NCBI GenBank assembly: GCA_018398585.1
Contig: JAGTTD010000008.1
Span: forward strand, 818,501 to 882,500
From: Simmondsia chinensis
Taxonomy: Eukaryota > Streptophyta > Magnoliopsida > Caryophyllales > Simmondsiaceae
Length of the DNA stretch: 64,000 bases
Direction: 5' to 3'
Each line of letters starts with the position of its first letter. Within the stretch, counting starts at the first letter, position 1. This document shows, piece by piece, positions 3,563 to 62,400 of this stretch. The notes beneath the pieces are model-generated. The model saw nothing but the letters and a program-made list of their open reading frames with translations. It made no database searches and was not told the origin of the DNA. The position numbers and the translations under genes are program-made.

Positions 3563-4270
3563 AAGTGAGTTACTCCACCTACTATCAATTGATTTTAAAT
3601 AAAATCATATCCAATATGTGTATTAGAGTCGAGGTTTATACACAGTCGAAAGCCTGCTGTTGATGTTCTCGGATAATCAAAGGAGAGGTTCTAGCGTTGG
3701 AGAAGGTACAAGAACATTTTGTATATGTATATTAATTGTTGATAAATTAAAGATTGTTGATAAATAATTTTATTATTTGGTTTAACTAAGATTGTTGTTA
3801 AATAATTTTTTCATGTTCACAAAAAAAATTTGTTAATCTAAGAATTGTTCACATTCTAGATCTACTTTTTTTTTCCATGTTATGTTTTTGTTCTTGCATT
3901 CATTCATTTTCAATTCTTTCTGTTTAAAATGTCGCACAGCTATTGAGCTCCATAGAGTCCTTAATATTTATAATTTTATTCAAATTAGTCCTAGTATTTA
4001 TAAACTTATTTAAACTAATTATTTATCCTTTAAAATAATTTTTAATGTTCTGTTTTATAATAAAATTAATCTCTAATCTAGTGACTAAATGTAGGTAAAT
4101 TTTTTTTTAAAAATATGAATCAATGTTATCGTAAAATATACATAAAAAGCTATATTAAACATGACAAAAGATTAGATCAAAAAAATCATGACAAAAGATA
4201 TAATACCAATTTGAATAAATTCGTAAACATTAACGGTAAACCAAAAACATATAAATACCCAATTTAAACA

Positions 4271-4500
4271 ACATACCTAATGCCCCAAGGGCTTCCGCCT
4301 AAGCAGGGTAGGGGAGGGTAGATGTACGCAGCCTTTCCCCTTCAGGGTATTACCCCTGAAGAAAGCTGTTTCCCAGTGCCCCTAACCTCAGGGTGAAGAC
4401 TTTTCAAGAGGTTATCCATCCTCGTACTGCTCTCATCTAAACACGCTTAACTTCAGAGTCCTAATAGAATTCAGTGACGGCATGTTTATATCCTCTTTGA
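4271..4500 (-). mobile_element. 5S rRNA-headed SINE, full length, 19-bp TSD
   Basis: On the minus strand the element opens with a 5S rRNA-like head (around GAAGTTAAGCGTG and GATGGATAACCTC) and continues into the shared tail: CTGAAGGGGAAAGGCTGCG, then CTTAGGCGGAAGCCCTTGG, then GGTATGTT. Direct repeats TAAATACCCAATTTAAACA (4252-4270) and TAAATACCCGATTTAAACA (4501-4519) flank it, 18 of 19 identical, which fixes both ends. The head passes straight into CTGAGGTTAGGGG, a junction that marks one of two subtypes in this window. Confidence 0.8.
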
Positions 4501-6784
4501 TAAATACCCGATTTAAACATTATAAATAATTCGTAAGAGAGCAAATTGTACCGCCCATAAAAGTCGTCTTGAATTGTGATGTGAAAACGCGCATACTCAT
4601 TTAATAATTCGCCAGTTTAACCTTTAAAAACATTGTTATATCATGTACATAATTTAATCATGCTATCAATTTAATGACGTTACTTATAACCAAAAGTTTT
4701 ATTATCTATAATATGGGTCATATTTGAATCACAGTTATCTAATCATACCAAGTTTTATTAATTTTGCTCATAAAATCAAAAGTTCACTGTAGAACTTATA
4801 ACTTGGCTTTTGTTTGGGGATCATAAAATCACCTTTAAAAAATGATTAGTTTTCACCTAATTGAAAAACGTAATAGCATATGAAGATTTTAAGGAGAAAC
4901 CCCTTGAAATTTGACATTATGTGATCTTAACTTATTCGGAAAATTATCAAGAAACCCACACATGCCTCATCGAAACTGTTACTTTTAAGATCGAAAGGAA
5001 AACTTGGGTTCTAAGAACACTCTTATTTAAGATATCTCATGTTCTACATCTCGAATGGCAGCACGTGAACGAGCGAGTAGTATGAGAGCTTGTAGTTCAA
5101 CCGGTTAACCATGGCCGAATCTTCCAACTCCACACAAATCGACGTCTAACTTTAAAGCCGCCACAAATAATATAATTGGTATGTACTGATCAGCAACTAT
5201 CCACAAGAAAAACACAACTCAACTCAAAACCAAAGGACCCATTTAGTATCGTTTTCTTATTCCAATTTTTAGTTTTTTAAAAACAAAAACATAGGTTTTC
5301 TAACTTTCAATTCCCACAGGAACTTAAAAACCTAAAAACAAGAAAAACTCACTTGGAACACATTTTTAGTTTTTTAAAGGACAGAAACTCCAAGCACAAA
5401 ATGATACCGAACAACCCCAAAATGTCTCAGAAATCAAGATCGAATCCGGGTTTCCCCAAGCCAGTAATAACCAACCCTTTTTCCCCTCATTCTTCGGACC
5501 GGGTAAACCAATCAAAGTACACCACCACACTCTACCACGAGCATCGAATAAATGATTCCTGCAAAGCTCTTTCCATATAACAGTTCAACATTATCTCCAG
5601 TACATGTTTCATGCCAAAATGCATACCAAGAGCAACTCAACTCCATCAAATGTGTCAAAAATTTGATGGTTAAGTGTGAAGATGCGGCAAAAGGTGAAAG
5701 TGTAAAAATTAAAAATAAAAAAAGAAAGGGATGCCCACATCTCAAAAAGGTAACTTATTTAGGTGAAATCCATCAACAAAGATATAGATATAAAAGCATG
5801 CACATAAATTTGATGGGTCGAACTTGAATGGCGATTTTTAATTACCGACTCTTGCAAGGGATCCTCCATTTACCTCATCAAGCTTGTCGGACGATCATGA
5901 TACTTTCCAAAAATTGAAATTCTTGATCAATGAAGGAATAGGAGGACCATTTGAGTTCAATGAGATACCAAAATGGATGATTAACTCATTCCATAGTAAA
6001 AATAACCGCAGAAAATCCTTTGATAACACGAATTCCTTTATCCCAAAGATACCCCACAGTCAAAATAATTGGTTGAATCCCATGAAACCATTACACTAGG
6101 ACTCAATCTAGAAAGCTAACAAAATCAAACATAAACACAAACTCTCATTTGCTGGCCCTAATTCTATCTTCCCATGCGTTTCCTTCCCCGGAGTTTCACA
6201 GAGAGGCCAAACTTCTTTTTCAATATGCATATGCTCTCGACACAAATGCACAAGACCACAACTTCCAGGCATAATTATCATGTCAAACAGATATATCATG
6301 CATGCTATGTAGACCAGCATCAGGAATGCGAGTCGGCCACCAGTAACGTATCCAGCGTTTAGATTCGACTATGTTCTAAGATTTTTCTTTGTTCTTGTCC
6401 TTATCTGAAGTGTCTAAGTGTCAATAACAATATCTAAGCAGCGTAATCCGACACCAAGGTGTAAACAAGCACGTACAAGTAATCGAAACATAAGGATGTA
6501 CAGTACCTCTATCGAGCCTGGGAGATAAATACAGAGTTTGTGAAGAACGGGAAACACTGGGGAGTTCTACCTCCTCAACCCGCTGGCTTTTGTACTGCAG
6601 TGACATTTGCAGACAATTCATAAAAGTTAAGCAGCTTATAATAAGATTTAATTGTCGAAAAACAGAAAAATACAATACAAAACTAAACAGGGGGAAACAC
6701 TCTTAAATTTTTGTTTATTTAAACTCCCAAATAAAAAGGATCAAGCTAGGCACCTCATAAATGGAACTCTTTGACAAGTCAGTC

Positions 6785-8056: not shown

Positions 8057-11000
8057 CTAGCCAAACAAGCCCACAGACCCCAGTTCTGCTTGCTGGAGCT
8101 CTTTCCTGCGCTGCTCTTCTAGTGGATCTGGACTCTTCAGAACCCTCCTCATGCGCCTGACAAGTTCATCAACAAATCATTACACAACAAGCAACCAACA
8201 TTGCCCACTCCCAAAAATATGCAATTCATAAAATTAAGATACCTGTCCTGCGCATGTTGAGCAGGAAAAGTAGGCATGAACTCCTTCGATTTGGGAAGCG
8301 GAACTTCACAGAACCACTCATGCTTGAGAGCAGTATCAGCCGTTATACGCTGCATTTTACCGTCACAAATTTATAATAAACATAACAACAAACATACCAA
8401 TATTCAGGGAGAATCAGGCCTCTCAAACAAAGTATACCTTTTCAGGGTCATAAGTTAGAAGTCTGTTCAACAAATCAAATCCAGCATCAGAAAGAACTGG
8501 AGATCCAGTGAAGGATGTTGCTGGGAATTTCTTGCGCAACTGATTATACCTGAAAGAGATGAGCAGAGAGTTAACAATACCAAAGGTATATGCCCTTGAA
8601 ACTGAAAGTGTACCAATGAGGCCAGAAAGCCAGACCAGAATCACCCAAAGCTGGAAGCCTGGGAAAAGAGTGCAGAGAATAAGAAAACAAGGACAAAAGT
8701 GCGATTAGAGCGGAATTATGACAATCAAGAAATACTTACTGGTGCTTCACAAAATTGACCTTCACACCAGGCAACTTGGAAAACCCAGGCCAAATTGTCT
8801 CATTGGGAGTACCAAGGATCCGGAATATCTGCAATCATGACACATCAATGAGATAAAATGACTCCAGCAATCACCAAATAAGTGGAACGTTCAAATAAGA
8901 AAATGACCAGCAACGTTAATTTGTTTTACCAGATGATCAGTTTATCGACCTTGTCAATGCGATCTCTACTTTCAGATAAATTGATGTACCTTGTCAAGCT
9001 GATCAAATTCTGATTTCCCCTTAAAAAGCGGCTCCTTTGACAAAAGCTCAGCCATGATGCATCCAAGTGACCACATGTCAATTGCCGTGGAATATTCTTT
9101 AGCTCCCAACAGAAGTTCCGGTGCCCTTAAAAACAAAAAGACAGAGATCTCATCTCCAGCATAAACATAAACAGAACAATACCATGACAATAACATGTAA
9201 AGATAAGAAGCTAAAAGCCAAACCAGCCCGCAAAAATCTCACAGCAAACAATATCATAAGAGAGACCATCACATTGCTAAGTCCCCGTCTCCTGAAGAGC
9301 GTAGTGTAGTAGTAGGGACTTCCACAAAAAATAGCAACAGCACAAAGAAGACATTCTAACTACACCTACAGCAATGATTGGGATAAATATTTTCGTAACA
9401 ATAATGCAAAATACAATGCTTGAACAATCTACGAATAACAACAGGAAACATAAGTGGATTTTCATAATACAAGAGAAGTCCCCAAATAATGAGAATAGCT
9501 AGAGCAGAGAAAGAACTTAATCTCAACAACAAAGGAAAACAAAGTGAAATCAGTTTTGCAACTAACCTGTACCAGAGAGTGACAACCAGGTGAGTGTAAG
9601 GCTTCAATGGACTACCATATTGACGAGCCAATCCAAAGTCACAAATCTTCACCTCAGCTTGGTTGTTCATAAGCAAATTTGACGTCTTTAAATCACGATG
9701 AAGCACCCAATTGTCGTGAAGATACTTGATGCCCTCTAGCAGCTGCAGCATGAGGCATTTAACTTCGCTTTGACTAAATGGTTGCTTCATTGTCTCTATC
9801 AGTCCTTTAAGATCATGCTCCATATATTCCATTACCATAAAAATACTATCGAGACTGCTCCCCACTACAACCTCCTTAACATTCACAATTGAAGGGTGGT
9901 TCAGTGACAGAAGAATGTTTATCTCCCTAAGAGATGTCAGAGGAAAACCTTCCCGTTCTTTCTCCATTTTTACCTTTTTCAATGCAACAATTTCCCCCGT
10001 CTTCTTATCTCTAGCTCTATATACAACACCATAGGTGCCTTCATCTATCCTATTCAACCTTTCAAACTCATCCACACTTCTACAGCCCTGAAGCATGTTA
10101 AGTGTCCTTTTAGGAGCAGAAGGTTCAGGTGTGTAACAAGAATCGTGTTCATCATCGGAGTCTGTATCTGATGGGCTAATACTAATATCACTGTTGTCAT
10201 ATTTATCATCCACCTCCATACGGACTTCTCTATCCCGGTCCTTATCAATACCACAATCTCCAGTAGATGGTCTACTACGTATGCCCCCATCAGAATCTGA
10301 TGATCTTGTCCTCGCTCCATCAGAAAGATCCCGTTTAACCTCACCGAGTTCAGGACTAGATGATTTCTCATTCATTCTACTATCTAAAATATCAGAAGAG
10401 CGCATATTCTTCCTCCTCATACGTACGTCATCACCGTCAGAAATTTCACCTTCATCAGCAGGAGAGGTAGCATCACCGGCCCATCGTGAAGAAGATATGT
10501 TCCTCGTAGGTATATAATCCTCTTCTTCTAGAAGCTCCACTTCCACATCGTTTCGTTGCTGCTGATGGGGCGACAAGTAATGCAAATCAGCAGGAGACTC
10601 TGGTGCAGTATTTTCTTCCAATCGGCCTTCCATGGGAGCTTTTGCAGTGGAAGCTTGGAGTTCCTGGGGCTTGCCATCTTTTACAGGTGACATATGCCTA
10701 TTTTCTTCAGAAATCACATGAGACAACTGACGGGATGATTCGGAAAATGGAGGACGAGCAGCTTCGGTTGACTTTGCCCTACGTTTCGAAGAATCTTTAG
10801 CATCCTTATCATCCCTGTCCCACACTATAGGAGAAAACTTCCTTTTCCTAGAGACTGGTGAAGATGGAATACCGTTCATTTTCAGCATCACACTTACTTT
10901 TGCTTGCGATTTTGATTCAGATTCAACAGCAGCATCAGACCCACTCTCACTAGATAGCTCGCCTGGCTCACGGTCAGCAATCCCAGCCGAAAACTCACAT

Positions 11001-11281
11001 CTCCTTGGACCTCCACCGCCGCCGCCACCACTAGCACCTGAATTGCTTCTACTAGAAGAAGAGCGATAACCCCCGTTTACAGATTCCCTCTCCTTAATAT
11101 CCTTCTGCCTAATCCGACATCTTTCTCTATCTCTTACATCCCGGCTGCGCATTCTGCTTCCGTTCCCAATCCTATCAGAACTATCCCTGGAGCAAGTAAC
11201 ATCGCGCCTCGACGCATCATAATCAAACCCGCGCTCTCTGAATTCAACATCGTGGTAGGCCCCATGCCTTCCTGCCGCCAT
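8057..11281 (-). CDS. CDKG2: Cyclin-dependent kinase G2-like Ser/Thr kinase (PITSLRE/CDK11 class), 752 aa
   Basis: Coding exons on the minus strand: 11281-9567, 9125-8990, 8828-8740, 8549-8438, 8349-8243, 8156-8057; the sum is 2259 nt in one frame. Residues 1 to about 400 are a low-complexity Ser/Arg/Asp/Glu-rich region, as in CDK11-type kinases linked to splicing and transcription. The kinase domain begins near residue 402 with [13 protein letters not shown] (glycine loop), then PLTSLRE (the plant form of the PITSLRE helix), [10 protein letters not shown] near residue 528 (catalytic loop), DFGLAR, and [12 protein letters not shown] across the first intron. The C-terminus is [12 protein letters not shown]. 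The length equals that I recall for Arabidopsis CDKG2 (At1g67580). Known roles of plant CDKG with cyclin L are pre-mRNA splicing and meiotic synapsis; I infer these here from family only. The ATG at 11281 starts the typical MAAGRHG. Confidence 0.93.
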
Positions 11282-12575: not shown

Positions 12576-12584
12576 AGATAAAGA

Positions 12585-12808
12585 AGGTACCAACACGTCG
12601 ACACCGGATCCTATTAGAACTCCAAAGTTAAACTTGCTTGGGCGAGAGCAGTAGCAAAATGGGTGAAATGAAGTCCTCACCCTCAGGTTGGGGACACTCG
12701 GAAACAGCCTCTCTTCAGGGGTAATACCCTAAAGGGATAAGGCTGCGTACATCCGTCCCCCCAGATCCTGCTTAGGCGGGAGTCCTTGGGGCACTGGGTT
12801 GTTGTTTA
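12585..12808 (+). mobile_element. 5S rRNA-headed SINE nested in the hAT-like element
   Basis: The head reads ACACCGGATCCTATTAGAAC, then TCCAAAGTTAAACTTGCTTG and GGCGAGAGCAGT, clearly 5S rRNA-like. It passes into CTCAGGTTGGGGACACTCGG, then AGGCTGCGTACATCCGTCCC, then TTAGGCGGGAGTCCTTGGGG and TTGTTG. No clean target duplication is visible, perhaps because the host is itself repetitive. Insertion occurred after the host element was in place. Confidence 0.7.
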
Positions 12809-21033: not shown

Positions 21034-21135
21034 TCCACTCTCAATTTTGTCTGCTTTCCCGGATGCTCGTAATAAATAGCTTACCTTCGGACTTTTTGGT
21101 TAAAAAAATAACCCGGATTACTTTTTTAACTTCTG

Positions 21136-21311
21136 TGAAGTCCTTTTTTATCCAGGATGGGTGACCTCCTGGGAAGCCCTCACCCTTAGGTTGGGGGTAT
21201 TGGAAAACAACCTCTGTTCAGATTAACACCCTGAAGGGGGAAGGCCGCGTACATCCATCCCCCCAGACCCTGCGTAGGCGGGAACCCTTGAGGCACCAGG
21301 TATGCTCCTTT
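21136..21311 (+). mobile_element. 5S-derived SINE with most of the head deleted, perfect 18-bp TSD
   Basis: TTACTTTTTTAACTTCTG stands at 21118-21135 and 21312-21329. The element keeps only the last part of the 5S head (AGGATGGGTGACCTCCTGGG) after a short T-rich start, then CTTAGGTTGGGGGTATTGG and the shared tail, ending GAGGCACCAGGTATGCTCC rather than in TTG repeats. Confidence 0.78.
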
Positions 21312-21674
21312 TTACTTTTTTAACTTCTGGAGTTCTCTGCCATTAAATTATATCTTTTTTAAGGGACAAAATGTGTAACATAGTAACAAATTGGAGGTAA
21401 TTACCCCATTTGTTTAGCATTATAAAAAGTTTGTTTAAATTAATTTTTTATTCTCCCGAAAATTATGACATTAGTGTTTATATTTTGCTCATGCTTTTAT
21501 TTATTTCAGTCAAATTTAATGTTAAAATTAATAGTAAACTGATTTAAATATTTTATTATTTACGTACCCTTGAGCTTTAAAATTTTATCAGTTAAATACT
21601 CCTTTCGTCAAAATTTGATATATTTGCGTTAAAAAATGCTAAAATGGAACACAATTTCAATAATATATTAGTAT

Positions 21675-23562: not shown

Positions 23563-23898
23563 TGTGCATTTTATTTCACTATGTATCCTTTAATTTATGT
23601 ACCATATTATAGCAGCAGGATGTGACGCTTATAATCGGGCTGCTGCTACTACAGAGAGTACGTCCATTTATATATGATTTATTATGGGCTGGGCCTGGCC
23701 CACTATATATTTGTTTTAGGAAATATTTTGTATATTTATTTTAATATTTCGATATATATTACATTTTTTTAGTTTTAAAATTTTTATTACTTTTTTTATC
23801 ATAAATTTTTTTTTTCATAAAGTTTAATTTTCAATGATTAAATTCCTCTGTTGAAATTTAGCAGATTTTTATTAGAAAATATTGATATAGAATATCTA

Positions 23899-24148
23899 GA
23901 GTTCATTTACACGGCAGTAATGCACCGGATTTCATTAGAACTCCGAAGTTAATCATACTTGAGCAAGATTAGTACCAAGATGGGTGACCTTTTGGAAAGT
24001 CCTTATGTTGCCAACCCTATAAGATTGGGGGTCATCGGAAATAGTCTCTGCGCAGGGTTATACCCTGAAGGGGTAAGGTTACGTACATCTACCCCTCAAG
24101 ATCCCGCTTAGACGGGAGCACTTGAGGTACTGGGTCTATTGTTGTTGT
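23899..24148 (+). mobile_element. 5S rRNA-headed SINE, full length, perfect 18-bp TSD
   Basis: ATTGATATAGAATATCTA is present at 23881-23898 and 24149-24166. The head covers nearly all of 5S rRNA (AGTAATGCACCGGATTTCAT, AGAACTCCGAAGTTAATCAT, AAGATGGGTGACC, GTCCTTATGTTGCC). It is joined through AACCCTATAAGATTGGGGGT to the tail (CCCTGAAGGGGTAAGG, CCCGCTTAGACGGGAGCAC, TTGTTGTTG). Length 250 bp. Confidence 0.85.
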
Positions 24149-24626
24149 ATTGATATAGAATATCTATTATAATTTCATGTTTTTTTTTCCTCATAATTTA
24201 CAGACATGTTAATTATATATATAGATACATCCATCATAATTCGGTGAATTTTTTCGTAATCCGCTGCATTTTTGTTAAACACTGACATAACTTATATATA
24301 TTATCAAAATAATATGTCATGTTAATTTTTTAGTAAAAACTGTTTGAAATTTTGACAAGAATTCACTGTATTTAGATATAAGATATATAGATGATCAAAT
24401 TATCAAAACTAATTGTACTTTATTATATATATGTTAACGTAACATAGTGCATAGGTGCTAAACACTCAAATTTCACGTTACACAAGTGATAATTTCTATT
24501 ATTTATATTGGTAGACGGATCAAAAACTTTCTTAACGTGGATAATAACTTTGGAAAAGCTGTAATAATGAGCTTCGAATCGAATACATATAAGAAATATA
24601 GTGGGAATTTGAACTACCAAGACCAG

Positions 24627-25712: not shown

Positions 25713-32094
<6,382 letters not shown>

Positions 32095-33543: not shown

Positions 33544-36500
33544 TCACATTATTGTGCAGTTGCATTTAGATTCCAACTTTGGAGGCTTCATACTTTCACC
33601 ATTGTTAGGAACACCGACATTCCGAACCCGAGGTTCTTCTGACCTATCATCGTTCTCCGTGCTGCTCAATGGAGGTTTTTTCTCGGTTTCCGATGACCTC
33701 CTTTGCCTCGTTTTCTGAGGTTTTACAGCGCATTTTCCGGTGCTACTTGCGCTTGTGTCTTTTCTGACAGAAACGGGTCGGTCTGGTATGGTGATTGTTG
33801 GCCTGGAACCTTCGAAAGGTTCTAGATTTTCCTTCTCTTTTTCGATTGCGATATTCGCAGCCTTGAAAGCAAGATCATGAATGATCGAACTGCAGAAGAG
33901 GATGGTGTCGGTTGCTTCTTCGAGCGTTAGGCTTCTCGGCATCCTCCTGCTCTGGTCCTCCATTGTCACCGTTGAACTCTCTAGACAGGAAAGAAGGCGA
34001 TAGCATAGTTAATAGAATACGGTACAAGAACTAGACGGAATTTCGTACCTTTGAGTATTATTCATCTCTATACCAAAAAAAATTTTGGTCCATAGTTCAT
34101 TGAGTTATAAAAGAATTTATATACAATCACATTTATGTCCATAGCAAGTCTTTTCTAAATATTGATATAATGCAGAAGAGGATATAATTTTGTCAATTTG
34201 ACTCTTGTTTAATGGTATTACCCATAATAATAGTAGCAAGAATCATAACACGTAGTAAAAAATAAGGTATAAGCCAATAGTTTAAAAGTTGATAGAAAAT
34301 TTTATAAACATATAAAATTTGAGCACTTAATTTAGGTATAAGTATGACAAGTTTAAACTAAACATTTGTTTTTTTATTAGGGAAAAACAAGGATACATGT
34401 TACAAAACGTGTATTCTATGCCTAACGTAAATTTGGGTATTTTACTATATTATTCACAATGACATTAGGATACGTTTATTTACCAGACACTAATGTACCG
34501 GATCCTATTAGAACTCTGAAGTTAAGCGTGCTTGGGCGAGAGTAGTACTAGGATTGGTGACCTCCCGGAAAGTCCTCATGTTGCCAACCCTATAAAGTTG
34601 GGAGTCCTCGGAAACAGGCTCTTAGCAGGGTTACACCCTGAAGGGGTAAAACTGTGTACATCCACCTCCCAGACCCCGTTTAGGCGGAAGCCTTGAGGCA
34701 CTGGGTCCGTTGTTGTATTGACAATGACATGTGGATGTCCTTTTTAAACAGCAAATACGGATACGTATTTATTATACCTATTATATGCATATTTTTTATT
34801 AACAGTGGGTGTTACAGGTTACCCATTAACATTAAAAGCGCGTTCACTTTGCAAAAATACTCGGTTTTCCAAGGAAAATTTTCCAAACCCTCATTTTTTC
34901 TAGAAATAAAGTGTTCAAAAGAATTAGTTTTCCTGAAGATCTTATCGAACCGGGCTCAAACAAATGTCCGAAAGCTCGATAAAAGCTCAGCTCGAACTTG
35001 AGCTCGATAATTCTTATAGAACTTGAGTTCAAACAAGGGGACGCTCGACTAGACTTAGCTTGTTTACCCCCCTAGTGATAATAATGGAAGTTATGGGATG
35101 AAACACCACATCAACAAACACCAAGACGACACGTACCAGTAATTTCTTGCACACGCTCTGAATCATTAGAATCCGGAATCATGTCCGTCGCATGATGATC
35201 TGGGTGTGTCAGAACCGTTGGATCTTGCAACTCGTCCTTAGCACCAGCATCGATCTGCGACCTTGGCGAACTAGGATGAGAATCATCAACTTCTATTTCA
35301 GACATGGTAGGTAAAGAATCCTGAGCCAAAACTTCTGTAACTTCTATCTCTTGGCCGCTATTGACTGGCTTAGTTTCTTCCAGAAGAGACGACTCGAATC
35401 CAACAATTGATTGGTTTGCATTTTCAACGCTTCTACTTCTCCCTGGGATCCCTTGATCAATCTCAATAGCCAGCTGGGTGCTCCTTGTAATGCCTGAAAA
35501 ATCAGGAGTACAAGCGTCTTTTTCTATATGACTTGCGTCATCATTATCAATATATCCTGTGGATGACACTGCCTTTGTGAAAGAAGGCTCTTTTTCAAGC
35601 AATTCACGATTTTCCGAAGGTAATACTCGTTTATCGGACAATTCATGAATTTCCGCTTTAAGGGCCGGTCTCATGCCACCAATGGACTCATAATCTTCTC
35701 CACATGTGCTAGTTGAATGACTAAAACCTTGGTAAGCATGACTTGAAATTCCTGAAAAAGACGACCCGCTGCTTTGAGGATTCGAGCTCATTTCAGATCT
35801 TCGCGCACTCAATTGCCTTTGCACAAGTGTATCTGCACGTCTAGACGAACTCAGATCGACAGAAGATGACGTTGACAAACTACCATAACCAACTGAGCTT
35901 CTTGTAGAAGCAGTCAAGTCTCTTGCATAAGACACGTCGTCATATGACATGGCACTGGCACTAATGGTCCGACCTTGAAGAAGAGGCCCTTTTATACTGC
36001 TTGATCTTCTCAAAAGAAGCACTGAAATTCCTGTACCTTCAGTAACATCAGTTTTCGAATCACAATGATAACTGTTTTTTTGCGTCACATGATGCGCATC
36101 AAGAGCATCAGATGACCCATAAGCAGTTTCCTGGTCATGCATAATTTCAGTCCCTTCAGTAACATCAATTTTCGAATCAGAAAATTTACTATTTTTTTGC
36201 ATCTTGCAATGCTCGTCAACAGCATCAGATGGTCCATAAGCAGTTTTAATCTCCCTATTTAGAGTCTCGTTATCATTCATAAGATCTCCCTTGTCAGTAA
36301 CATTCTGAGACTCTGGCTGTATCAGTATTAGTTCAGCTACACTTCGTTCCCCAGAGATTTTCTGAGTGTCATCCGTATCAGTCAAAGCGGCAGGGATGAT
36401 CAAACGCTCTTCTTTCTCCTTGCATTCAGGGCATATATTACGTAGAACTTCTGAGGATTCAATGTCATGATACTTCCTACCACATTTATCACATGTTTTT

Positions 36501-43349: not shown

Positions 43350-44008
43350 CATAGAGGGTAGTACAAGCAGCAGATACGGCGGGTGCTTCCTTTATACTCG
43401 TACTCGTTACTAAAATTTGTACCCATATTTTTTACGGGTATGAAGCGAATGCATATACCTATTCTGGTGGGTGCAATTCAATCTCGTACCTGCCCTTGTG
43501 CGTGTAGAAAACGATTATGTGTACCTGCTTATATTAAGCATTTAATACTATTTTTAAAGATCTACTTAATGTCATACCCAATACCCCAAGGGTTCCTGCC
43601 TAAGCAGGGTCTGGGGGGCGATTGTACACAGCCTTCCTCCTTCAGGGTATTACCTCTAAAGAGAGGCTGTTTCCGAATGCCTCAACCTATGAGTGAGGAC
43701 TTCCTAGGAGGTCACCATTTTAAAAATTCACTTATATTTTCTTATAACATTGATAAAAAATTTAGGTTATTGAATTTAAGCACTTATTTTTTAATTAGAA
43801 AGTTAATTATATACAAAATGGAGAACATATGGCGGGTATGAGGTGGGGCGGAGTGGGTACAACACCATACCTGTACCCACCCCATACCCGTGGCGAGTAC
43901 GAGGCAAGGACACTAAAACCTTACCCGCTACCCGTCTCACTTATATTTGTACTTGCCTTAAACGCAACGGGTAGCTGGTTTTACTCGCCGCATTGCTATC
44001 CCTAACGA
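43350..44008. mobile_element. Probable second hAT-like element of the GGGTACGGG/GGATGGCAAT family with a nested tail copy
   Basis: The right end reads TAGGGATAGCAATGCGGCGA on the minus strand, as in the element at 12132-12912. Both flanks of the nested SINE contain GGGTATGAAGCG, GGCGGGTATGAGGTGGGGCG and ACCCACCCCATACCCGTGGC words. The left end is not certain and no clear target duplication was found. Confidence 0.4.
43572..43720 (-). mobile_element. 5'-truncated 5S-SINE
   Basis: On the minus strand it begins within the 5S head (ATGGTGACCTCCTAGGAAGT), then TCATAGGTTGAGGCATTCGG, AGGCTGTGTACAATCGCCCC, CAGACCCTGCTTAGGCAGGA and CCCTTGGGGTATTGGG. It lacks the first two thirds of the head. Confidence 0.65.
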
Positions 44009-46131: not shown

Positions 46132-46669
46132 TTTCATTTATTTTATGTGTTAATATAATAATATTGGATCCACCTCAATCCAGCTAGACTGTCTCGTGTC
46201 TGCCTAACTCGTACACTGTCAACGTAAACAAAATTGGGTTTCAGCAAATATTTAATAATAAGAAATAAAATGACAAACAAGCATTTTTAAAAAAAATTTA
46301 AAAAAATTAGGAATGTTCCATAAATAAAAAAAATGACATACATGTCACTATAAACGGTTGGTGACAACTATTTTTTTTCCCCACATAATTTCATTAATTA
46401 AAATAAAACCCTAAATCCTAAAATTAGACTTGAATTTAACTACTTTAAACTTTATTTAAAATTCCACCGAACTTAAGCGCGACCCTTAAAATTGGTATAA
46501 AAATTTGCACATATAAACACATATAAGAGGCCATCATAGAATAATTCAGTAGACTTATATGTTAATTTCTTTTCTTACAGCCTTAATGTGAGACAAACAT
46601 ACATGTAAAATTTTCACCATTTTCAAACAAACATAACTTATGTTACATAAGGTTTGAAGAGTGCTAGTT
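44009..46669. other. AT-rich spacer without recognised genes
   Basis: Apart from the tRNA-type SINE at 44698-44866 this is very AT-rich sequence with an (AT)n run at about 46088-46128. It includes a piece of the AATTGG/R-type dispersed repeat at 46490-46615. No open frame looks like a gene. Confidence 0.5.
44698..44866 (+). mobile_element. tRNA-derived SINE with perfect 12-bp TSD
   Basis: AATTATCCAATT flanks at 44686-44697 and 44867-44878. TAGCCGAGTGG at 44712-44722 fits an A box and GGATCGAATCC at 44755-44765 fits a B box, about 43 bp apart, as in RNA polymerase III promoters of tRNA genes. The body ends in an A-rich tail. It does not share the tail of the 5S-headed elements, so it is an independent family. 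Confidence 0.8.
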
Positions 46670-46678
46670 TGACTTAGG

Positions 46679-46935
46679 AGGGTTCATTCACCAAGCACTA
46701 ATGCAATCAAATTCTATTAGAACTCCGAAGTTAAGCGTGCTTGGGCGAGAGTAGTACCAGAATGGATGACTTCCTGGGAAATCCTCTTGTTACCAACCCT
46801 ATAAGGTTAGGAGTCCTTGGAAACAACCTCCCGGCAGGGTTACACCCTGAAGAGGTAAGGCTGCGTACATCCACCCCCGACCCCGCATAGGCGGGAGCCT
46901 GTTGAGACACTGGGTTCGTTATTGTTATTGTAGTA
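46679..46935 (+). mobile_element. 5S rRNA-headed SINE, full length, 9-bp TSD
   Basis: TGACTTAGG flanks at 46670-46678 and 46936-46944. The head contains CACTAATGCAATCAAATTCT, AGAACTCCGAAGTTAAGCGT and GCTTGGGCGAGAGTAGTACC, all typical 5S rRNA. It then goes through AACCCTATAAGGTTAGGAGT into TTACACCCTGAAGAGGTAAG and CCCCGCATAGGCGGGAGCC, ending in TTATTGTTATTG. Length 257 bp. Confidence 0.83.
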
Positions 46936-47110
46936 TGACTTAGGTTAAGAGGCATGCTAAACCACTAATTGAAACTAACCTATGGTTTTGCATCACGAGC
47001 CGCGGTCGTCTAAATGTTGACACTATGATTATAACATTGCCTACATCAAATCAATCCTTCAATAACATTTGTATTCATAGGGCAAGAAGCCGGTGTATAT
47101 AAATTTCTAA

Positions 47111-47343
47111 GAGAGTACTAACATGTAAGCACTCCATTATAACTCTAATGTTAAGCATGCTTGGCTGAGAGTAGTACCAAGATGAGTGACCTCCTAGAAA
47201 GTCCTCGTGTTGCACCCCTCAGGTTGAGGGTTCTTAGAAACAGCCTCCCTTCAAGGAAGCACCCTGAAAGGGGAAAGCTGCGTACATCCACCCTCTCAGA
47301 CCCTGCTTAGGCGAAAGCCTTCAAGGCACTGGAAATGTTACTT

Positions 47344-47345
<2 letters not shown>
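47111..47345 (+). mobile_element. 5S rRNA-headed SINE, short-tail subtype
   Basis: The head reads AACTCTAATGTTAAGCATGC, TTGGCTGAGAGTAGTACCAA, GATGAGTGACCTCCTAGAAA, GTCCTCGTGTTGCACCCC, then directly CTCAGGTTGAGGGTTCTT and the tail. It ends GGCACTGGAAATGTTACTTT instead of TTG repeats. No clear target duplication. Confidence 0.7.
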
Positions 47346-47374
<29 letters not shown>

Positions 47375-47575
47375 ATTAGAACTCCGAAGTTAAGCGTGCT
47401 TGGAAGAGAGTAGTACCAGGATAGATAACTTGGGAAATCCTCACGCCTCAGGTTAGGGGTACTCGAAAACAACCTCTCTTTAGGGTAGCATCCTGAAGGG
47501 GGAAGGCTACGTACATCCATCCCCCCAGACCTTGCTTGGGTAGGAGCCCTTAGGGAATTGGGAATGCTGCTTTTT
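47375..47575 (+). mobile_element. 5S rRNA-headed SINE, short-tail subtype, next to an (AT)n run
   Basis: It begins at ATTAGAACTCCGAAGTTAAG directly after a (TA)n microsatellite, continues GTGCTTGGAAGAGAGTAGTA and CAGGATAGATAACTTGGGAA, then CCTCAGGTTAGGGGTACTCG and the tail, and ends TTGGGAATGCTGCTTTTT. The first third of the 5S head is missing. It lies in tandem with the copy at 47111. Confidence 0.7.
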
Positions 47576-48193: not shown

Positions 48194-48325
48194 TTAGGGT
48201 TGGGGTTCTTTGGAAACAGCCTCCCTACCGAATAATACCCTATAGGGGTGAGGCTACGTACATCTCACCCTCCCCAGACCCTACCTTGGCGGGAGCCTCT
48301 TCGAGGCATTGGGTTTGTTGTTGTC
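48194..48325 (+). mobile_element. Tail-only SINE/LINE copy, perfect 13-bp TSD
   Basis: TGAGGTAGGCATG flanks at 48181-48193 and 48326-48338. The insert starts TTAGGGTTGGGGTTCTTTGG, exactly where the shared tail begins, and contains no 5S sequence, so its parent (SINE or LINE) cannot be told. It ends TTGGGTTTGTTGTTGTC. Confidence 0.78.
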
Positions 48326-48707
48326 TGAGGTAGGCATGGGCACTATCCACACTTTAAGCCCAATGAGTATTTGCGTGGGATTTAGGAATGGTTGGTTCCT
48401 TGACAAGCTCTCCATTTCTATCCAATATTTTGAACGTGTCCAAAGACAAAATTATGTGAACATCACATGATGTGATATGAAGAATGCAATTCAAATTGAT
48501 CTAGTGATGTACACGTGACTTTGGCTGCTAAAAGAGTTCAAAATTTCAATGGAATAGCGACACTAAATCTAATTAATGCAAACTTGTTAAGGGAATGAGT
48601 TTGAATCCACTGTCCTTTAATCTAGTGGTACAAACTACCATAGCTGAGGTTCTAGGAGATGAGGTCTAGGTTATAATTCTTCTAAACCCACTTTACGTAT
48701 AAAAGGG

Positions 48708-48964
48708 TTAGTTTAATAGGCACTAATACACCGGATCCCATTAGAACTCCGAAATTAAACGTGCTTGGACAAGAGTAGTACTAGGATGGGTGACCTCCTA
48801 GGAAATCCTCGTGTTGCCAACCCTATAAGGTTGGGGATCCTCGAAAACAGCCTCTCGGCAAGGTTACACCTGAAGGGGTAAGGTCACGTACATCCACCCT
48901 GCCCAACCCCACTTAGGCGGGAGCCCTTGAGGCATTGGGTCTGTTGTTGTTGTTGTTGTTGTTG
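48708..48964 (+). mobile_element. 5S rRNA-headed SINE, full length, perfect 20-bp TSD (best copy)
   Basis: CCACTTTACGTATAAAAGGG stands at 48688-48707 and 48965-48984. After TTAGTTTAATAG the head follows 5S rRNA closely: GCACTAATACACCGGATCCC, ATTAGAACTCCGAAATTAAA, CGTGCTTGGACAAGAGTAGT, ACTAGGATGGGTGACCTCCT and AGGAAATCCTCGTGTTGCC. Then come AACCCTATAAGGTTGGGG, ACACCTGAAGGGGTAAGGTC, CACTTAGGCGGGAGCCCTTG and about six TTG units. The long exact duplication and high 5S identity suggest a fairly young insertion. Length 257 bp. Confidence 0.9.
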
Positions 48965-49119
48965 CCACTTTACGTATAAAAGGGGGGATGTGTTTGAAAT
49001 AGAAAGTGGAGAGATTTTATAGTTAAGAGGACCTGTATAATATGTACTCGATGAATAACTTCATACCTCTCAAAATATGAATAAGATGAAGGGCTTGTGA
49101 AGCTTCTGAAGTTGTAAAT

Positions 49120-55100: not shown

Positions 55101-57253
55101 AAAGTTTGTATTGTTGCTACTTCTGTATTTTCCTTTGATCAGTGGAATGAACGTACTTGTTTGCCTTTTGGCCAAAAAAAAATAAAAAAAAGGAATTAAG
55201 AAGGGTTGGGAAGTCCTTCCTTTTCTTATTGTAGATGTCAGAGAGAATACTAAAGGGTAGCAATTCTCTTCCCGGCAAGTGAGTAAAATCAACGAGTAAA
55301 TATTTGATGAAATCATTGCTTAGAGCAACAAAATCTCAAATGTTTCATGGCCTATATCCCACATTTTGTGCACATTCATTCAAGGAAAGTCTCTTGAACA
55401 AAGAAAGATAATGTAACATAATGAATTAAGCAACATCGTCATGGCAAGTTAGCTGCAAATTATCCCTTAGCCTTACACTCACATATCAACATCGCGACTG
55501 GAGTAGACATAAAGATTAGGCTCTTCCTTGATAAATGCTTCCTTCTGCTCATTTTGTAGGTGCAATAGGAATCCTTCCATCTCATCATTCCGTACAGTTG
55601 AGTCATTTAACTGCCTGTCACATACTTGTTCATATTAGGTAGCTACATACTTCACAAACAAAAAAATGATACAATGCTTTACCTAATGACATTAATTTAG
55701 ATAAAACCCTGTATTATATTCATCAGGATCTTCTTGTTACATAAAATTCTATCTTCAGTCATAAAAAAGCAACTCTAACACTCCATTTAGCCTTCAACTC
55801 TGAGGCTTCAGCCGGATTTTAACATATAAATCAAGTGATTTCATAATTGAGCACAAAAGGAAAAATTTCCATTTTCTAACCAATTTAATTGTTTCTTAGA
55901 ATTAAGCAAATTCCTACATGAAATGAACCAATAGCTGCTGCATATACTTTCCGTTCAACAAACCAACTATTTGAAAAGCTTAAGTTGCTAGGTAAATTTT
56001 CATAAATGATTATCTACTCTAACATAGAACTCGCGGGAAGCCCATTGGGCCTGAATCATAGATAATTCCATAGAACTCCTTTAATCCTCCTTTTTTAATT
56101 ATATTAAAATAAAATTTGAAGTTTGGGCTATGGGATTCGAACTCCAAGCATCTCAATCAAAGAGGATGAGATAACAAGTTGAAAATCAACTACCCTAAGA
56201 TGTTAAGTTGTTAGGTGATGAAAGCCCGTGAATTATTTTATACTCTAACGGTGGATAGCCTTTGTTCCTCTTCTCAACCAATTTAAATTCAAGCCAACCA
56301 CTCAGACCCTAAAATCTACATTTATCATAGGAAATTCAAACAATTTCTAGAATTTTGTAAGGCTAGTGTCAAGGAACCAATCATCCCAAAAGCTTAAACT
56401 AATGGTTGAAGGCCCGGGATAGGTTTTACACTCTAACCATTTTATAGCCCCACCTCACCTCATACCTTAAGCTTAAATTATATTAATATTGAATTCATGA
56501 CTTCTTAATTAACAAAGCTCTAATACCATGTGAAAGAACTAACTATGACAAATGTTGAAGTTGATAGGTGAAAGCTCATGATTAATTTTGTACTCTAACA
56601 GCTGGAGATAAAAAGAAAAAAAACTAGGGATAAGAGAGGCGGAGAAATAACCTGTTGAGATAGTAAACCTCCCAACTTGAAATCAGATCTGCCGGTGTAA
56701 GCTTGTAATTTATACAAAATGTAAGACCTAAAACATAGATTCAGTGCATATTATTAGCATACATTTTAGATAAGACATAATTGCGATTATGCCAAATCCT
56801 TTGTAATGTACTCTTCTCTATATAATGTTATACCAGCAACCCTATTGGATAATGCTCTCTAACTATTATGTCACACAGAACATTAAATTTCACTGGGCTT
56901 TAGGCCTAACCCATGAAGCTGGCACACACGAAATTCACATATAAGCCCAAGCGGACTTCTACCCTAAAACCAATTTACACCACGGAAAAACCCACGGGTA
57001 TTGAATATTGATATCTTTTCTCTTACAACTCCGATATCAAATTATATTTCTTCACTAGAATCACACGTGAACTCCTCAATACACATAGCATCACCAAATT
57101 TCAATCGTCTAGATCTCAGTTTCACAGCAGAAAACCAAAAAAAAGGGCAAAAAAAAGGGAGGAAATCGAACATATACATTTACTGAGAACTGCTTCGTCG
57201 TCGTCGATGGTGAAACCGCTCTTGTTGAATTCTGCTTTGATTTCCGCCTCCAT
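49120..57253 (-). CDS. POLA2: DNA polymerase alpha subunit B (POLA2), 620 aa
   Basis: Coding exons on the minus strand: 57253-57178, 56727-56652, 55614-55483, 54869-54509, 54418-54323, 54212-54133, 53616-53541, 53441-53265, 51258-51154, 51071-50976, 50861-50769, 50676-50638, 50556-50515, 50032-49902, 49789-49663, 49275-49120; 1863 nt, one frame. It is the non-catalytic B subunit that tethers primase and catalytic subunit in the Pol alpha-primase complex at replication origins. The N-terminal domain (MEAEIKAEFNKSGFTIDDDE, SSWEVYYLNR) is followed by a linker (TPFGQRANKFVVQF, GCRFMYDRIEDR), the OB fold (VRLDLEKLNQYSIFPGQVIG) and the inactive calcineurin-like phosphoesterase fold (AAGPFTTTDNLLFEPL, LGPFVDSEHPEI, PSIRDANHDFVFPQ, ITSLGNPGIFYANE). 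The end is CVNPGRLAKGIGGGTFVELD. Exon 14 ends at a GC donor. Length and segments agree with Arabidopsis At1g67630 as I recall it. Confidence 0.95.
49462..49573 (+). mobile_element. Tail-only SINE/LINE fragment in the last POLA2 intron
   Basis: It begins AAGGTTGGGGGCCCTCGGAA and ends GAAGCACTGGATTTGTGGTT, with an internal deletion of the CTGCGTACATCC block. It is antisense to POLA2. No clear target duplication is visible. Confidence 0.6.
49898..49902 (-). other. Non-canonical GC splice donor of POLA2 intron 14
   Basis: On the minus strand the exon ends CAACGCAG and the intron begins GCATGT; the acceptor is GCAAGCAG before CTTCTATCCG. Only this choice joins the frames to SQRSFYPLYPP, as in the family. 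The nearby GT four bases on would break the frame with every nearby acceptor I checked. Confidence 0.75.
51424..51698. mobile_element. MITE (same family as 2581-2911) in POLA2 intron 8
   Basis: The right end inverted reads GGCTCTATTTATTTTGATGG, nearly identical to the left end at 2581. The left end here is GGGCCCCATTCGATTCAATA followed by GAAAACATTTTCC. The interior is AT-rich with GGAAAATATTTTCC words. Confidence 0.55.
51869..52937. mobile_element. Copia-like LTR with primer-binding site, interrupted by a MITE, in POLA2 intron 8
   Basis: The LTR begins TGTTAGGATTATGTC and ends CCCTAACA (TG...CA with the inverted repeat TGTTAGG/CCTAACA). It is followed after AAT by TGGTATCAGAGT (52941-52952), a primer-binding site for initiator methionine tRNA. 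A GCGGTTATAAATATTGGGGC box and a leader lie inside. Without the nested MITE the LTR would be about 530 bp. No second LTR or coding domain is seen; the element seems truncated shortly after the binding site. TTAAC precedes the LTR as a possible 5-bp target site. Confidence 0.72.
52324..52864. mobile_element. MITE with AAGGCGC-rich ends nested in the Copia-like LTR
   Basis: The ends TGTATAAAAAGGCGC and, inverted, TGTATAAAAAAGCGC are terminal repeats. Flanks GTGAGCAA and GTGGGCGA agree in six of eight bases, which fits an 8-bp hAT-like duplication. GC-rich arms (AAGGCGCAAGGCGAAGGCGC; GCGCCTTGGCGCGCCTC) surround an AT-rich middle. It inserted after the LTR did. Confidence 0.65.
56885..57095. repeat. 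Dispersed AATTGG/R-type repeat in POLA2 intron 1
   Basis: TTAGGCCTAACCCATGAAGC, CACATATAAGCCCAAGCGGA, ACCCTAAAACCAATT and TTGATATCTTTTCTCTTACA align block by block with the R units at 16340, 19010-20125 and 46490. The class of this repeat is unknown to me. Confidence 0.5.
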
Positions 57254-57261
57254 TGCTCTCT

Positions 57262-57300
<39 letters not shown>

Positions 57301-57520
57301 GGGTTTGAATTCGGGAGTTCTTCTGCCGGTGAGTAGTGAGAGAGAGAGAGAGGAAGAAATGGCGGGAAATCTCCCCGGCACTGGTTCTTTTCCTATTATA
57401 CCCTTGAGGAGTTGTGTTATTTACGAATTGTGCCATTGGGCCTGTATGTTAAATTGTCTGAATTCGGTGAAACTGTGGCCCAACACAGTTCAACAAAAGC
57501 AGGCCCAACATAAGTTCATG
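57254..57520 (-). promoter_or_regulatory. POLA2 promoter with E2F site, telo-box and three site-II-like motifs
   Basis: Going upstream from the ATG: a CT/GA microsatellite in the leader; a telo-box AAACCCTAA (57298-57306, minus strand); TTTCCCGCC (57361-57369, minus strand), a perfect match to the E2F consensus TTTCCCGC; and GGCCCA/TGGGCC at 57437-57442, 57477-57482 and 57502-57507, which are site-II-type elements. E2F sites drive S-phase genes, and telo-box plus site II pairs occur in plant PCNA and ribosomal protein genes, which suits a replication gene. Confidence 0.7.
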
Positions 57521-58621: not shown

Positions 58622-58759
58622 CAGCAACAACAACAGTAGTCCCAGTGCCACAAGAGCTCCTGCATAAGCAGGGTCTCGGGAGATAGATGTATGCAACCTT
58701 TCCTCTTTAGGGTGCTACCCTGAAGGGAGGCTATTTCCAAGGACCCTCAACTTGAGAAC
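58622..58759 (-). mobile_element. Tail-only SINE/LINE copy, perfect 17-bp TSD
   Basis: CAAAGCCAAAAAAGCAA flanks at 58605-58621 and 58760-58776. On the minus strand the insert starts TTCTCAAGTTGAGGGTCCTT, the start point of the shared tail, and ends ACTGGGACTACTGTTGTTGT. Confidence 0.75.
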
Positions 58760-59409: not shown

Positions 59410-62400
59410 CTAAAACACAAGACTTCTACAGGCACGTCGTGGCTGTCTGCACCCAACCGAGTCTTCAACAACGAGGCCTTGCGCGCCGAAGCATACATAC
59501 TGATTCATCACTCCCAACTTGCTCAACGAACTCTGCCTTCGATGAGCTGCTGATTTCATCATACTATCACCCCCAAACCGTGCACTTTTATGTCTTCTAT
59601 CCATTGAAGTTGGGCTTGAACCCATCGAGTTACAGAATTGGCTTGAAGGTGAGTAATAAGCCAAGTGAACCGAGGCTGGCGTGGCTTGAATCACACCCTT
59701 CATAAGGCTCGCCGTGAACCTCTCCTTGGCAGAAGGGCTCGGGAACTCCCATTTAAGAGAAACTGCCCTTTTATCCGGCAACGAAGATGAGTTTCTGGTA
59801 AACCTCTGTCGAAGTGGGGTTGGGATATCATCTGAGCTTTTGCATACCTTAAACAACTTAACCGAATCAGCGTCTTCATTACCTTCCATCTTCGTGTTTT
59901 TTCTTCTGCTTTTGCCTTTCCTTTTCGGCCATTTGAGGAGGATTCTCAAGTGCCCTTTACTAGAATCGGAGCCACATTGTTGGCTAGCGCATGAACTCAA
60001 CTCACTACTTTCTGAACGACAAGCATCCTCAGAAGCACTGTCATTGTCGTCATTGTTCTTGTCAGTTAACAAGAAAATCTCGGAATCTGGGGTTCGGAAT
60101 GAAGTGCCAGGGCTATTACCAACGCCCAATTGCACTCTAACTCGTCCATTTCCAGCCACTTGATCTTGACCATTAGCTATAGCACCCATTGAACCTAGCC
60201 GCTTAATCAATACTCGACGACCAACAGTCTCTGGGCCCCGCTTGAGATGATCAAGCGGGGTCAACCCATCAAGATCAACGACATTCACATTGATACAAGG
60301 TACCTTAATCAGAAGTTCAACCAGACCAGTTTCACTCTGCTCGAACACAGCCAAATGCAAAGCAGTTCTGCCACCGTCATTCCTGACATTGATGATGTTT
60401 TCGAGACTGACGGTATTCCCGATGAGTAGCCGAGTCATGAGGTCGAGCCTTAAGTCGAGCCGGTGAAAACCGGGGGCACAAAACCCGAGAATCGCCATGT
60501 GGAGGAAGGTGTTGCCTTGGTGGTTAGTTAAGGATGCCAGTGAAGGAGATGCAAAGAGCAAAGCCTCAACAATAGAGAAGTGGCCTTTGTAAGCAGCCAC
60601 ATGGAGTGGTGTATTGCCCTGGTTATCTCTTGAGTGAACCATATTATCATATGACGCAATTAAGAACTGTACTACCTGCATCAAAATAGTATAAGATTTG
60701 GGCATTTATTACATAAAAATTTGATATTTTAATATATATACAATAAGGTGAGGCTATCCTAACGGTTGGGGTGGCAGTTGGCCGATCTTGGGACATGGGT
60801 TTGAATCTGGCTTCCTCCCCCGACTTTACTGAAGTAAAAACAAAAACGATGAGGTATCTAGGGATTGGAAATTTTATCAACTAGTAAGTACCCTAAGCCA
60901 GATAAACGAGCCATGTAAATTCAATACGCCAGATTTTGAAAGTTTTATCATTTACGAGGTTTAAGCATTTATCACATACACAAGCCAAAATCCGACGCAT
61001 TTTTGTCAGAATTCACCGATTTTTTTCCCCCCAAAAATGTTGAAATAACACAAGATGCTCACAAAACATACGTAACCTAAGTTGGAATCTGGTGAATTTT
61101 TCACAATCTTGTGATATAGAATTCAGACAAAAACTCTCCAAATTCTAATATAGAATATTTAAATGATAAAATTTTCAAACCGTACGACATCTCATTATAT
61201 ATATTAAAATGTCAGAACGTCTAAACAATAAGTGATTAAATTTCATAATATTTGAGTAATAAATAGAAAGAGAGAGACCTCAAGCTGGCCTGTAGCAGAA
61301 GCAGAGGCAGAGTGCAAGACAGTAGAGCCCAGAGCATCTCTAAACCCCAAAACATCCCCACAATCAAATCCAAAATCCCCAAAAAGCCCCTGCAAAACCT
61401 CCAAATTACCTGCCCTACCAGCAGCATGCACTGCCCTGTTCATCACCTCTATGTAGTTACCATTATGCCCCTCTTCCAATGCAGAAATTGCAGAGTCCAG
61501 CAAAACCCTAAAAACAGCACAGCTATGACTCCGTGCACCCGCATACAGGAGATCACTGAGCCCGTACTCCCCTTGACCAAATACTAAAAGTGGGTCCCTC
61601 TCTAACAAGTCCTTCACGAACTCCACGTCACCAGCTGCTGCCGCGCTGTACAGGATCCACCCCCCATACCCTGCCACGGCAGCAAACTATAAGCACCGAT
61701 AAGACCTCAAGCAACATAGACAGTTATTTATACCCTGTTTGGTAATGAGACAAGGAGAAGAAGACAACAACAACATACCCAATGACTCAAGGACTTTCGC
61801 ATATGCAGGGTTTGGGAGGGGTGGGATATACGCAACCTTATCCTTTCAGGGCGCTACCCTCAAAGGAGGCTATATCCGAAGACCCCCAACTTGAGAATGT
61901 TAGACTGTATAGAAGAGAGAGGATAATGTATTGACAAAAATGTTAGACCATAAAGAAGCCATCATATCCCATTTAAGTCGGGGCAAAAACATCTCCCCTG
62001 TCTAGTAATTTTTTGGAAGGGGGCAATAGGGTAAATCTTATCCCCTGTACCAGTAGTCCTCAGTATCCTTTTTTACTTTACCTCTCAATTTAAGCGTAAG
62101 GATAAAGATTTGAAAATTTTAGACTATTTTGTCCCTGTTCAACTGTAACTCTCTTACATCTTATCCCTTTCTCCAAGTGCCAAACATAACATACCCAAGT
62201 AAGAATAATATACCCTCTTGACGTAACTAACAAATTGAGTTCGGGCCTTATTTTGTAAAGGTCCCTATCAGAAAATTTTGCGAAAGTCCTTGCAAGCACT
62301 GGGTTTCTTGTTGGTGTATCAATTGATTCTCTATATAACAACTAAATTTTATTATGTCAGTCATATAAGTGTTTTAATGCAAAGCCACCAATTGACCCAA

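What the first reader, a model, noticed from the sequence alone, without database searches (positions are those of the whole stretch)
48688..48984. A family of 5S rRNA-headed SINEs in a plant genome
Ten elements (4271, 12585, 21136, 23899, 34466, 43572, 46679, 47111, 47375, 48708) contain part or nearly all of a 5S rRNA sequence joined to one and the same ~110-nt tail ending in TTG repeats. The best are 230-257 bp, have no terminal repeats, and have direct duplications of 9-20 bp that differ from copy to copy (48708: 20 of 20; 23899: 18 of 18; 21136: 18 of 18; 4271: 18 of 19). The 5S part keeps the A-box to C-box region (AAGCGTGCTTGGGCGAG, GGATGGGTGACC), so copies may carry their own polymerase III promoter. 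5S-derived heads are established for animal SINE3-type elements. In plants the best-known 5S-containing elements are Cassandra TRIMs, which are built differently. Whether this plant family has been described I cannot tell.
Basis: partly seen in the sequence, partly recalled or inferred. Interest (0 to 1): 0.88.

Follow-up and report, generated by a model that had tools for sequence, protein, structure and literature searches.

The report
Plant SINEs with 5S rRNA heads
A flowering plant's genome carries thousands of copies of a small jumping element whose front is the plant's own 5S ribosomal RNA and whose tail is that of an RTE-type retrotransposon; elements with 5S fronts are known from animals and a fungus, but I found no report of one in a plant.

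Summary
The window has 10 headed copies, and the family is genome-wide (about 30,000 headed copies, wide error). A 5S rRNA head with its promoter region runs into a 117-133 nt tail. TSDs of 11-21 bp differ from copy to copy: 47 of 91 local copies against 17 of 546 swapped-flank controls, 13 of 20 against 3 of 380, 13 of 14 against 1 of 182. I also found where the tail comes from: 22 of 22 RTE-clade LINE 3' ends read (of 150 scored) carry it and end in TTG repeats. The head shares T39 and A49 with all seven host 5S genes read. Types: B (TTG-ended), C (GTTCC/T-rich end; scored copies 97-99% identical to consensus, so recent) and a rarely sampled A that looks ancestral. Best reading: a 5S-headed SINE born in this plant lineage, probably Caryophyllales, by joining 5S rRNA to an RTE LINE 3' end, and mobilised by RTE LINEs. 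The same architecture is known from springhare Ped-1. Ten searches of an open-licence library showed no plant case. Repbase, SINEBase, Seibt 2020 and other plant genomes could not be checked.

The parts
48688..48707 (+). target-site duplication, 5' copy (20/20); its last GGG may belong to the element
48708..48822 (+). 5S rRNA-derived head of the best B-type copy (A-box, IE and C-box region present)
   Evidence: Rfam RF00001 66.7 bits; box names from general knowledge
48823..48827 (+). end of the short B-type junction segment (CCAACCCTATA) between 5S head and LINE tail
48828..48964 (+). RTE-LINE-derived tail ending (TTG)7
   Evidence: tail shared with LINE 3' ends
48965..48984 (+). target-site duplication, 3' copy
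34466..34715 (+). B-type copy; TSD 34451-34465 / 34716-34730 (14/15)
23899..24147 (+). B-type copy; TSD 23880-23898 / 24148-24166 (19/19)
46679..46930 (+). B-type copy; TSD 46665-46678 / 46931-46944 (13/14)
4271..4499 (-). C-type copy; TSD 4500-4519 / 4251-4270 (19/20)
21136..21311 (+). 5'-truncated C-type copy; TSD 21118-21135 / 21312-21329 (18/18)
12583..12806 (+). C-like copy ending GGGTTGTTG, no convincing TSD
47111..47332 (+). A-type copy with the full 5S 3' end joined directly to the LINE tail; no TSD found
47375..47562 (+). 5'-truncated copy directly downstream, after an AT repeat; no TSD found
43573..43716 (-). 5'-truncated C-type copy; weak repeat only (10/11)
48194..48322 (+). tail-only copy with TSD 15/16 (truncated LINE or SINE)
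58622..58758 (-). tail-only copy with TSD 18/18 (truncated LINE or SINE)

Best explanation
These are copies of a non-autonomous non-LTR retrotransposon, a SINE with a 5S rRNA head. SHOWN: a head derived from 5S rRNA joined to the 3'-terminal 117-133 nt of RTE-clade LINEs of the same genome; variable TSDs; 5' truncation; dispersal over many contigs. INFERRED: RNA polymerase III (with TFIIIA) transcribes the element from its internal 5S promoter. The T-run that follows the host 5S gene is absent from the B and C consensus, so the transcript can read on through the LINE tail. The endonuclease/reverse transcriptase of an RTE LINE recognises that tail in trans and copies the RNA into a nicked site by target-primed reverse transcription. 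The family probably arose when an RTE reverse transcriptase copying a LINE 3' end switched to the 3' end of a 5S rRNA; this fits the A type, where the junction falls at the mature 5S 3' end. The family later split into B and C, and C was active recently.
For: 5S head: Rfam; the B consensus is identical to a host 5S gene at 110 of 117 aligned positions, with 2 deletions and 2 insertions besides. Host 5S genes are in arrays on contig C8 (47 of 51,838 first-look candidates scored); all 7 read carry T39 and A49, as do the B and C consensus and copy L004. TSDs at score >=11 against swapped flanks: 47/91 vs 17/546; 13/20 B copies on 19 contigs vs 3/380; 13/14 young C copies vs 1/182. LINE partner: an RTE RT query gave 150 scored of 10,719 candidates at 74-78% identity; all 22 3' ends read match the B tail at 73-89% and end in perfect or slightly broken TTG repeats. 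B copies start within 3 bases of the same 5' end in 18 of 20. Tail tree of 58 rows: SINE tails one side of a branch at 90/92, B 99/97, C 100/98. Activity: 40 of 40 scored C copies are 97-99% identical to the consensus. Precedent for a plant SINE sharing an RTE tail with TTG end: tobacco TS and potato RTE-1_STu (passages of PMC3747384).
Against: No transcript data, so Pol III use is untested. A 5S (type 1) promoter may depend on upstream signals that a SINE cannot carry (a speculation repeated in PMC8010984, passage). The promoter region is not clearly better kept than the rest of the head in B: 3 of 48 positions differ from the host gene at 50-97, against 6 changed or lost positions and 2 insertions in the other 71. 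The shared tail structure has no covariation support: 16 predicted pairs, 0 with changes on both sides. C-type copies lack the TTG end seen in all 22 LINEs read, so their partner is less certain; the search meant to test this did not complete (and repeats). 44 of 91 local copies, 7 of 20 and 1 of 14 gave no TSD at the threshold; at least three of the 47 positives are doubtful (an AT repeat, a TTG run, a piece of the element), and one of the 13 C positives (L082) lies about 40 bases upstream of the element. The SINE-LINE split of the tail tree is short of strong support, and the A type rests on 2 copies.
Confidence: 0.93

Rival explanations
1. The copies are remnants (solo LTRs or fragments) of Cassandra TRIMs, the known plant elements with 5S sequence in their LTRs.
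For: Cassandra is widespread in land plants and carries 5S sequence (PMC10853983 and PMC10886601, passages).
Against: B copies begin at 5S nucleotide 1 (18 of 20 within 3 bases) and end in an RTE LINE tail; TSDs are 11-21 bp, not the short fixed TSD of LTR elements (5 bp, recalled for Cassandra); no second LTR-like repeat around the type copy. Cassandra itself was not searched for in this genome.
Confidence: 0.02
2. Independent 5S retropseudogenes: 5S rRNA was repeatedly fused to LINE tails by template switching, with no SINE family of its own.
For: Template switching by LINE reverse transcriptases onto small RNAs is known (recalled); the A-type junction is at the 5S 3' end.
Against: B copies share one junction and C copies another; B and C tails form lineages of their own; C copies are 97-99% identical to a consensus that differs from host 5S at many positions, so copies come from copies.
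Confidence: 0.03
3. The elements are RTE LINE derivatives in which the 5S part is only a passenger, transcribed from neighbouring promoters.
For: The tail is LINE sequence; no expression data; in B the promoter region is not clearly better kept than the rest of the head.
Against: In C the ends of the 5S part are rebuilt or lost while 45 of 48 positions at 50-97 match the host gene; B starts at 5S +1 in 18 of 20 copies, as expected of a transcript begun there.
Confidence: 0.05

Closest known systems
Ped-1 of springhare (5S head, BovB tail)
   Same: 5S head and tail of an RTE-clade LINE (table row in PMC3747384, passage; that BovB is RTE-clade is recalled)
   Different: mammal; a different 5S and LINE, so presumably a separate birth
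SINE3 superfamily (zebrafish SINE3, AmnSINE1; HaSE3 and PxSE4/5 in moths)
   Same: 5S rRNA-derived head; HaSE3 is thought to use RTE (PMC7245038, passage)
   Different: reported from vertebrates and some insects (same passage); vertebrate ones use CR1; the B head here is closer to host 5S (110 of 117) than the ~63% given for PxSE4/5 (PMC8010984, passage)
TS SINE of tobacco and RTE-1_STu
   Same: plant SINE whose ~100-base tail is that of an RTE LINE and ends in TTG repeats (PMC3747384, passage)
   Different: TS has a tRNA head (recalled); this one has a 5S head
Au / Angio-SINEs (Angio-domain superfamily)
   Same: my recollection of the 37-bp Angio-domain resembles the GGTAAGGCTGCGTACATC..CCCAGACCC stretch of this tail; not confirmed
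   Different: a 2022 review calls plant SINEs tRNA-derived (PMC9033089, passage); the defining paper was not available
5S-related SINE of Aspergillus fumigatus
   Same: 5S-related head outside animals (PMC5063351, start of abstract in listings)
   Different: fungus; not compared by sequence
Cassandra TRIM
   Same: plant element carrying 5S sequence
   Different: LTR retrotransposon, not a SINE

Membership tests
SINE (non-LTR, non-autonomous) | short (<1 kb) and dispersed | tested here: met
   about 230-260 bp; 39 of 40 further scored matches near full length over many contigs
SINE (non-LTR, non-autonomous) | variable target-site duplications | tested here: met
   each with swapped-flank controls
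SINE (non-LTR, non-autonomous) | 3' end shared with an autonomous LINE | tested here: met
   22 of 22 RTE LINE 3' ends read, of 150 scored; for C the last bases differ
SINE (non-LTR, non-autonomous) | Pol III transcription from the head | not testable with these tools
   promoter region present in the consensus; no RNA data
SINE3 (5S-headed SINEs) | head derived from 5S rRNA | tested here: met
SINE3 (5S-headed SINEs) | common descent with animal SINE3 | tested here: inconclusive
   T39 and A49 shared with host 5S genes point to a separate birth; no animal family was compared directly
TS-type plant SINE | tRNA-derived head | tested here: not met
   head is 5S; ARAGORN found no tRNA in the window
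TS-type plant SINE | RTE LINE tail ending in TTG repeats | tested here: met
   B type; not met by C type
Angio-SINE superfamily | 37-bp Angio-domain at the 3' end | not testable with these tools
   Seibt et al. 2020 appeared only in reference lists; its sequence is only recalled
Cassandra TRIM | two LTRs and short fixed TSD | tested here: not met
   no LTR pair around the type copy, TSDs 11-21 bp
Cassandra TRIM | PBS and PPT | not tested
   not scanned

The most novel reading that the evidence does not exclude
The first 5S-headed SINE lineage of plants, born within one eudicot lineage by a switch from an RTE LINE 3' end onto the end of the plant's own 5S rRNA, and roughly datable because it carries some host 5S changes (T39, A49) but not others (A81, T95). 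One branch (C) has since replaced the (TTG)n end by a GTTCC/T-rich end and stayed recently active, so it may have changed how, or by which LINE, it is primed.
Probability: 0.5. Interest if true: 0.78.

Novelty: new variant of a known kind. Interest (0 to 1): 0.68.

Why it matters
[quoted passage not shown] One plant SINE annotation tool searches de novo for tRNA A and B boxes and drops candidates nearly identical to Rfam RNAs (AnnoSINE, PMC8825457, passages). An abundant, partly recent 5S-headed family could therefore be overlooked elsewhere. It shows that the plant 5S promoter can be captured by the SINE route as well as by Cassandra, and it puts a 5S-SINE, its likely RTE helper and its parental 5S genes in one assembly, so its birth and promoter needs can be tested directly.

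Tried and rejected
Cassandra origin, independent 5S pseudogenes and passenger 5S in a LINE derivative were considered and rejected (see rivals). Covariation in the tail: none. Heads folded alone: B closes with GGGTT/AACCC where 5S has GGGTG../..CACCC, one compensated pair only, too little to claim selection on structure. RT-like open frames in the first loci did not look RTE to me (no family search was run on them), so the LINE came. Species: the ankyrin gene's best hits were scattered over angiosperms; the CDKG-2 gene's best named hits were Ancistrocladus, Beta, Chenopodium and Nepenthes, followed closely by Vitis, suggesting but not proving Caryophyllales. Never answered: B-consensus search for the youngest B copies (not repeated), matK family, C-type LINE-end pattern. 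No other plant genome was searched. Ten paper searches showed no plant 5S-headed SINE; in three of them only the first 20 papers were listed (35, 27 and 51 found). I judged by titles and starts of abstracts, and looked up passages in ten papers; no whole paper and no supplement was read.

Full report
What is there. The window lies in an 831-Mb, 35-contig genome (G000:C3:818501-882500). Rfam's 5S model finds four heads above its cut-off and three below it in the window. The type copy has a 5S head 48708-48822, a short junction segment, a LINE-like tail 48828-48964 with seven TTG, and a perfect 20-bp TSD at 48688-48707/48965-48984.

Is it a family? The 5S 17-mer AAGCGTGCTTGGGCGAG occurs 5,566 times in the genome and its reversal 0 times. 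All 8 loci first returned show the 5S part followed by tail, in L005 only part of the tail. In the window and L001-L028, 35 of 35 such 17-mers lie in matches to the element and 33 of 35 in a match that also covers the tail; these 28 loci were chosen by that 17-mer. Among copies not chosen by it, 6 of 32 carry it exactly (2 of 8 in the window, 4 of 24 elsewhere), so 5,566 hits suggest roughly 30,000 headed copies, with a wide error and some true 5S genes among the hits. With the window copy as query, 6,068 first-look candidates were found and 40 scored, giving 41 matches: the copy itself, 39 others near full length at 87-91%, and one 47-base piece.

TSDs. In the window and L001-L028, 99 places matched the B or C consensus; 8 did not reach the 3' end and were dropped. 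Of the 91 left, 47 have a direct repeat scoring at least 11 (match +1, mismatch -2), against 17 of 546 when 5' and 3' flanks of different copies are paired. By class: full B 10 of 18, full C 16 of 23, truncated headed 12 of 19, tail-only 9 of 31. At least three of the 47 are doubtful. A second set, 20 of the 39 other near-full matches, on 19 contigs: 13 of 20 against 3 of 380. A third set, the 14 best of 40 scored C copies: 13 of 14 against 1 of 182; one of these (L082) has its repeat about 40 bases upstream. Repeat lengths run from 11 to 21 bp in the first set.

Types. Near-full local copies: 23 B and 30 C. B starts GGGTTCATTT at 5S nucleotide 1 and ends in TTG repeats; 18 of 20 copies begin within 3 bases of that start. 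C starts ACCAAAGAGGGCACC, has a rebuilt 5' part, lacks seven 5S bases near the 3' end, and ends GTATGTTCC plus T-rich or repeated GTTCC. An A type (L004, window 47111) keeps the 5S 3' end..GTGTTGCACC(C/T)CT, directly followed by CAGGTTG; LINEs often have TTCTC before AGGTTGG, so the exact junction base is ambiguous by two or three bases. The 40 scored C copies are 97-99% identical to the consensus (1,008 candidates); the B set is 90-96% identical to its consensus, but was picked by likeness to the window copy.

Where the tail comes from. Two were cut out with flanks and the next 20 rows of the table were read at their 3' ends: 22 of 22 carry the SINE tail, 73-89% identical to the B tail, in 17 of 22 with the match beginning exactly at AGGTTGG, and with TTG repeats (a few broken) at the end. 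One (L036) aligns over only 88 bases of the query. A tree of 58 tails separates LINE from SINE tails at 90/92 and places A, B and C together, with B and C each strongly supported; it has few columns and most inner forks are unresolved. RNAalifold on 32 tails found 16 pairs, none with compensatory change. A tobacco SINE (TS) shares its TTG-ending tail with a potato RTE LINE (PMC3747384, passage), so RTE tails in plant SINEs are not new; the 5S head is what I could not find in print.

Where the head comes from. True 5S genes sit in arrays on C8, with one hit on C29 among the 47 scored. The seven read all carry T39 and A49, as the B and C consensus and copy L004 do; the canonical plant 5S that I recall has C at both. 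At 81, six of seven host genes have A (one has C), at 95 all seven have T; B and C have G81 and C95, the canonical states that I recall, while L004 has A81. At 79 the hosts have T, the SINEs C. The simplest history is birth from this lineage's 5S after T39/A49 and before A81/T95; this leans on a recalled outgroup. The host 5S gene is followed at once by TTTTT; the B and C consensus as folded contain no TTTT.

Mechanism. Shown: composition, TSDs, truncation, dispersal, shared LINE tail. Inferred: Pol III transcription from the 5S promoter, read-through into the tail, recognition by RTE protein in trans, target-primed reverse transcription, and birth by template switch.

Literature and novelty. 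Kojima 2020 places 5S-headed SINE3 in vertebrates and some insects (PMC7245038, passage); a 5S-related Aspergillus family is reported (PMC5063351, start of abstract in listings); a 2022 review says plant SINEs derive from tRNAs (PMC9033089, passage); the 2024 Cassandra paper mentions SINEs 'in animals' when it speaks of acquired promoters (PMC10853983, passage). Ten searches showed no plant case. This is an open-licence library; Repbase, SINEBase and Seibt 2020 were not readable, so priority is unproven. The grade 'new variant' rests on a 5S head in a plant SINE; the 5S-plus-RTE build itself is known from Ped-1.

Host. The CDKG-2-like gene's best named hits are Ancistrocladus, Beta, Chenopodium and Nepenthes at 64-65%, with Vitis close behind at 64-65%, suggesting Caryophyllales; the species is not identified.

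Noticed in passing
window 57245-57381: Weak matches, mostly on both strands, to several unrelated miRNA precursor families; probably a foldback or MITE-like hairpin.
   Followed up: no
whole genome G000; L029-L050: RTE-clade LINEs are very abundant (10,719 first-look candidates, 150 scored), many of the scored ones without stops in the RT match, suggesting recent activity; several 3' ends carry long poly-C tracts (L030, L035, L043).
   Followed up: partly
G000:C8:4685657-4702430 and 6396691-6414603; C29:34924734: Two groups of 5S genes on one contig, whose units read differ at positions 12, 24 and 106, plus a 5S hit on C29.
   Followed up: partly
window 47111-47573: Two 5S-SINE copies in the same orientation separated by an AT microsatellite.
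   Followed up: no
window 9356-11281 (-), 59410-60705 (-), 27866-28420 (+): Open frames of a CDKG-2-like kinase, an ankyrin-repeat protein and a FAD-binding-domain protein; the SINEs sit in a gene-bearing region.
   Followed up: partly
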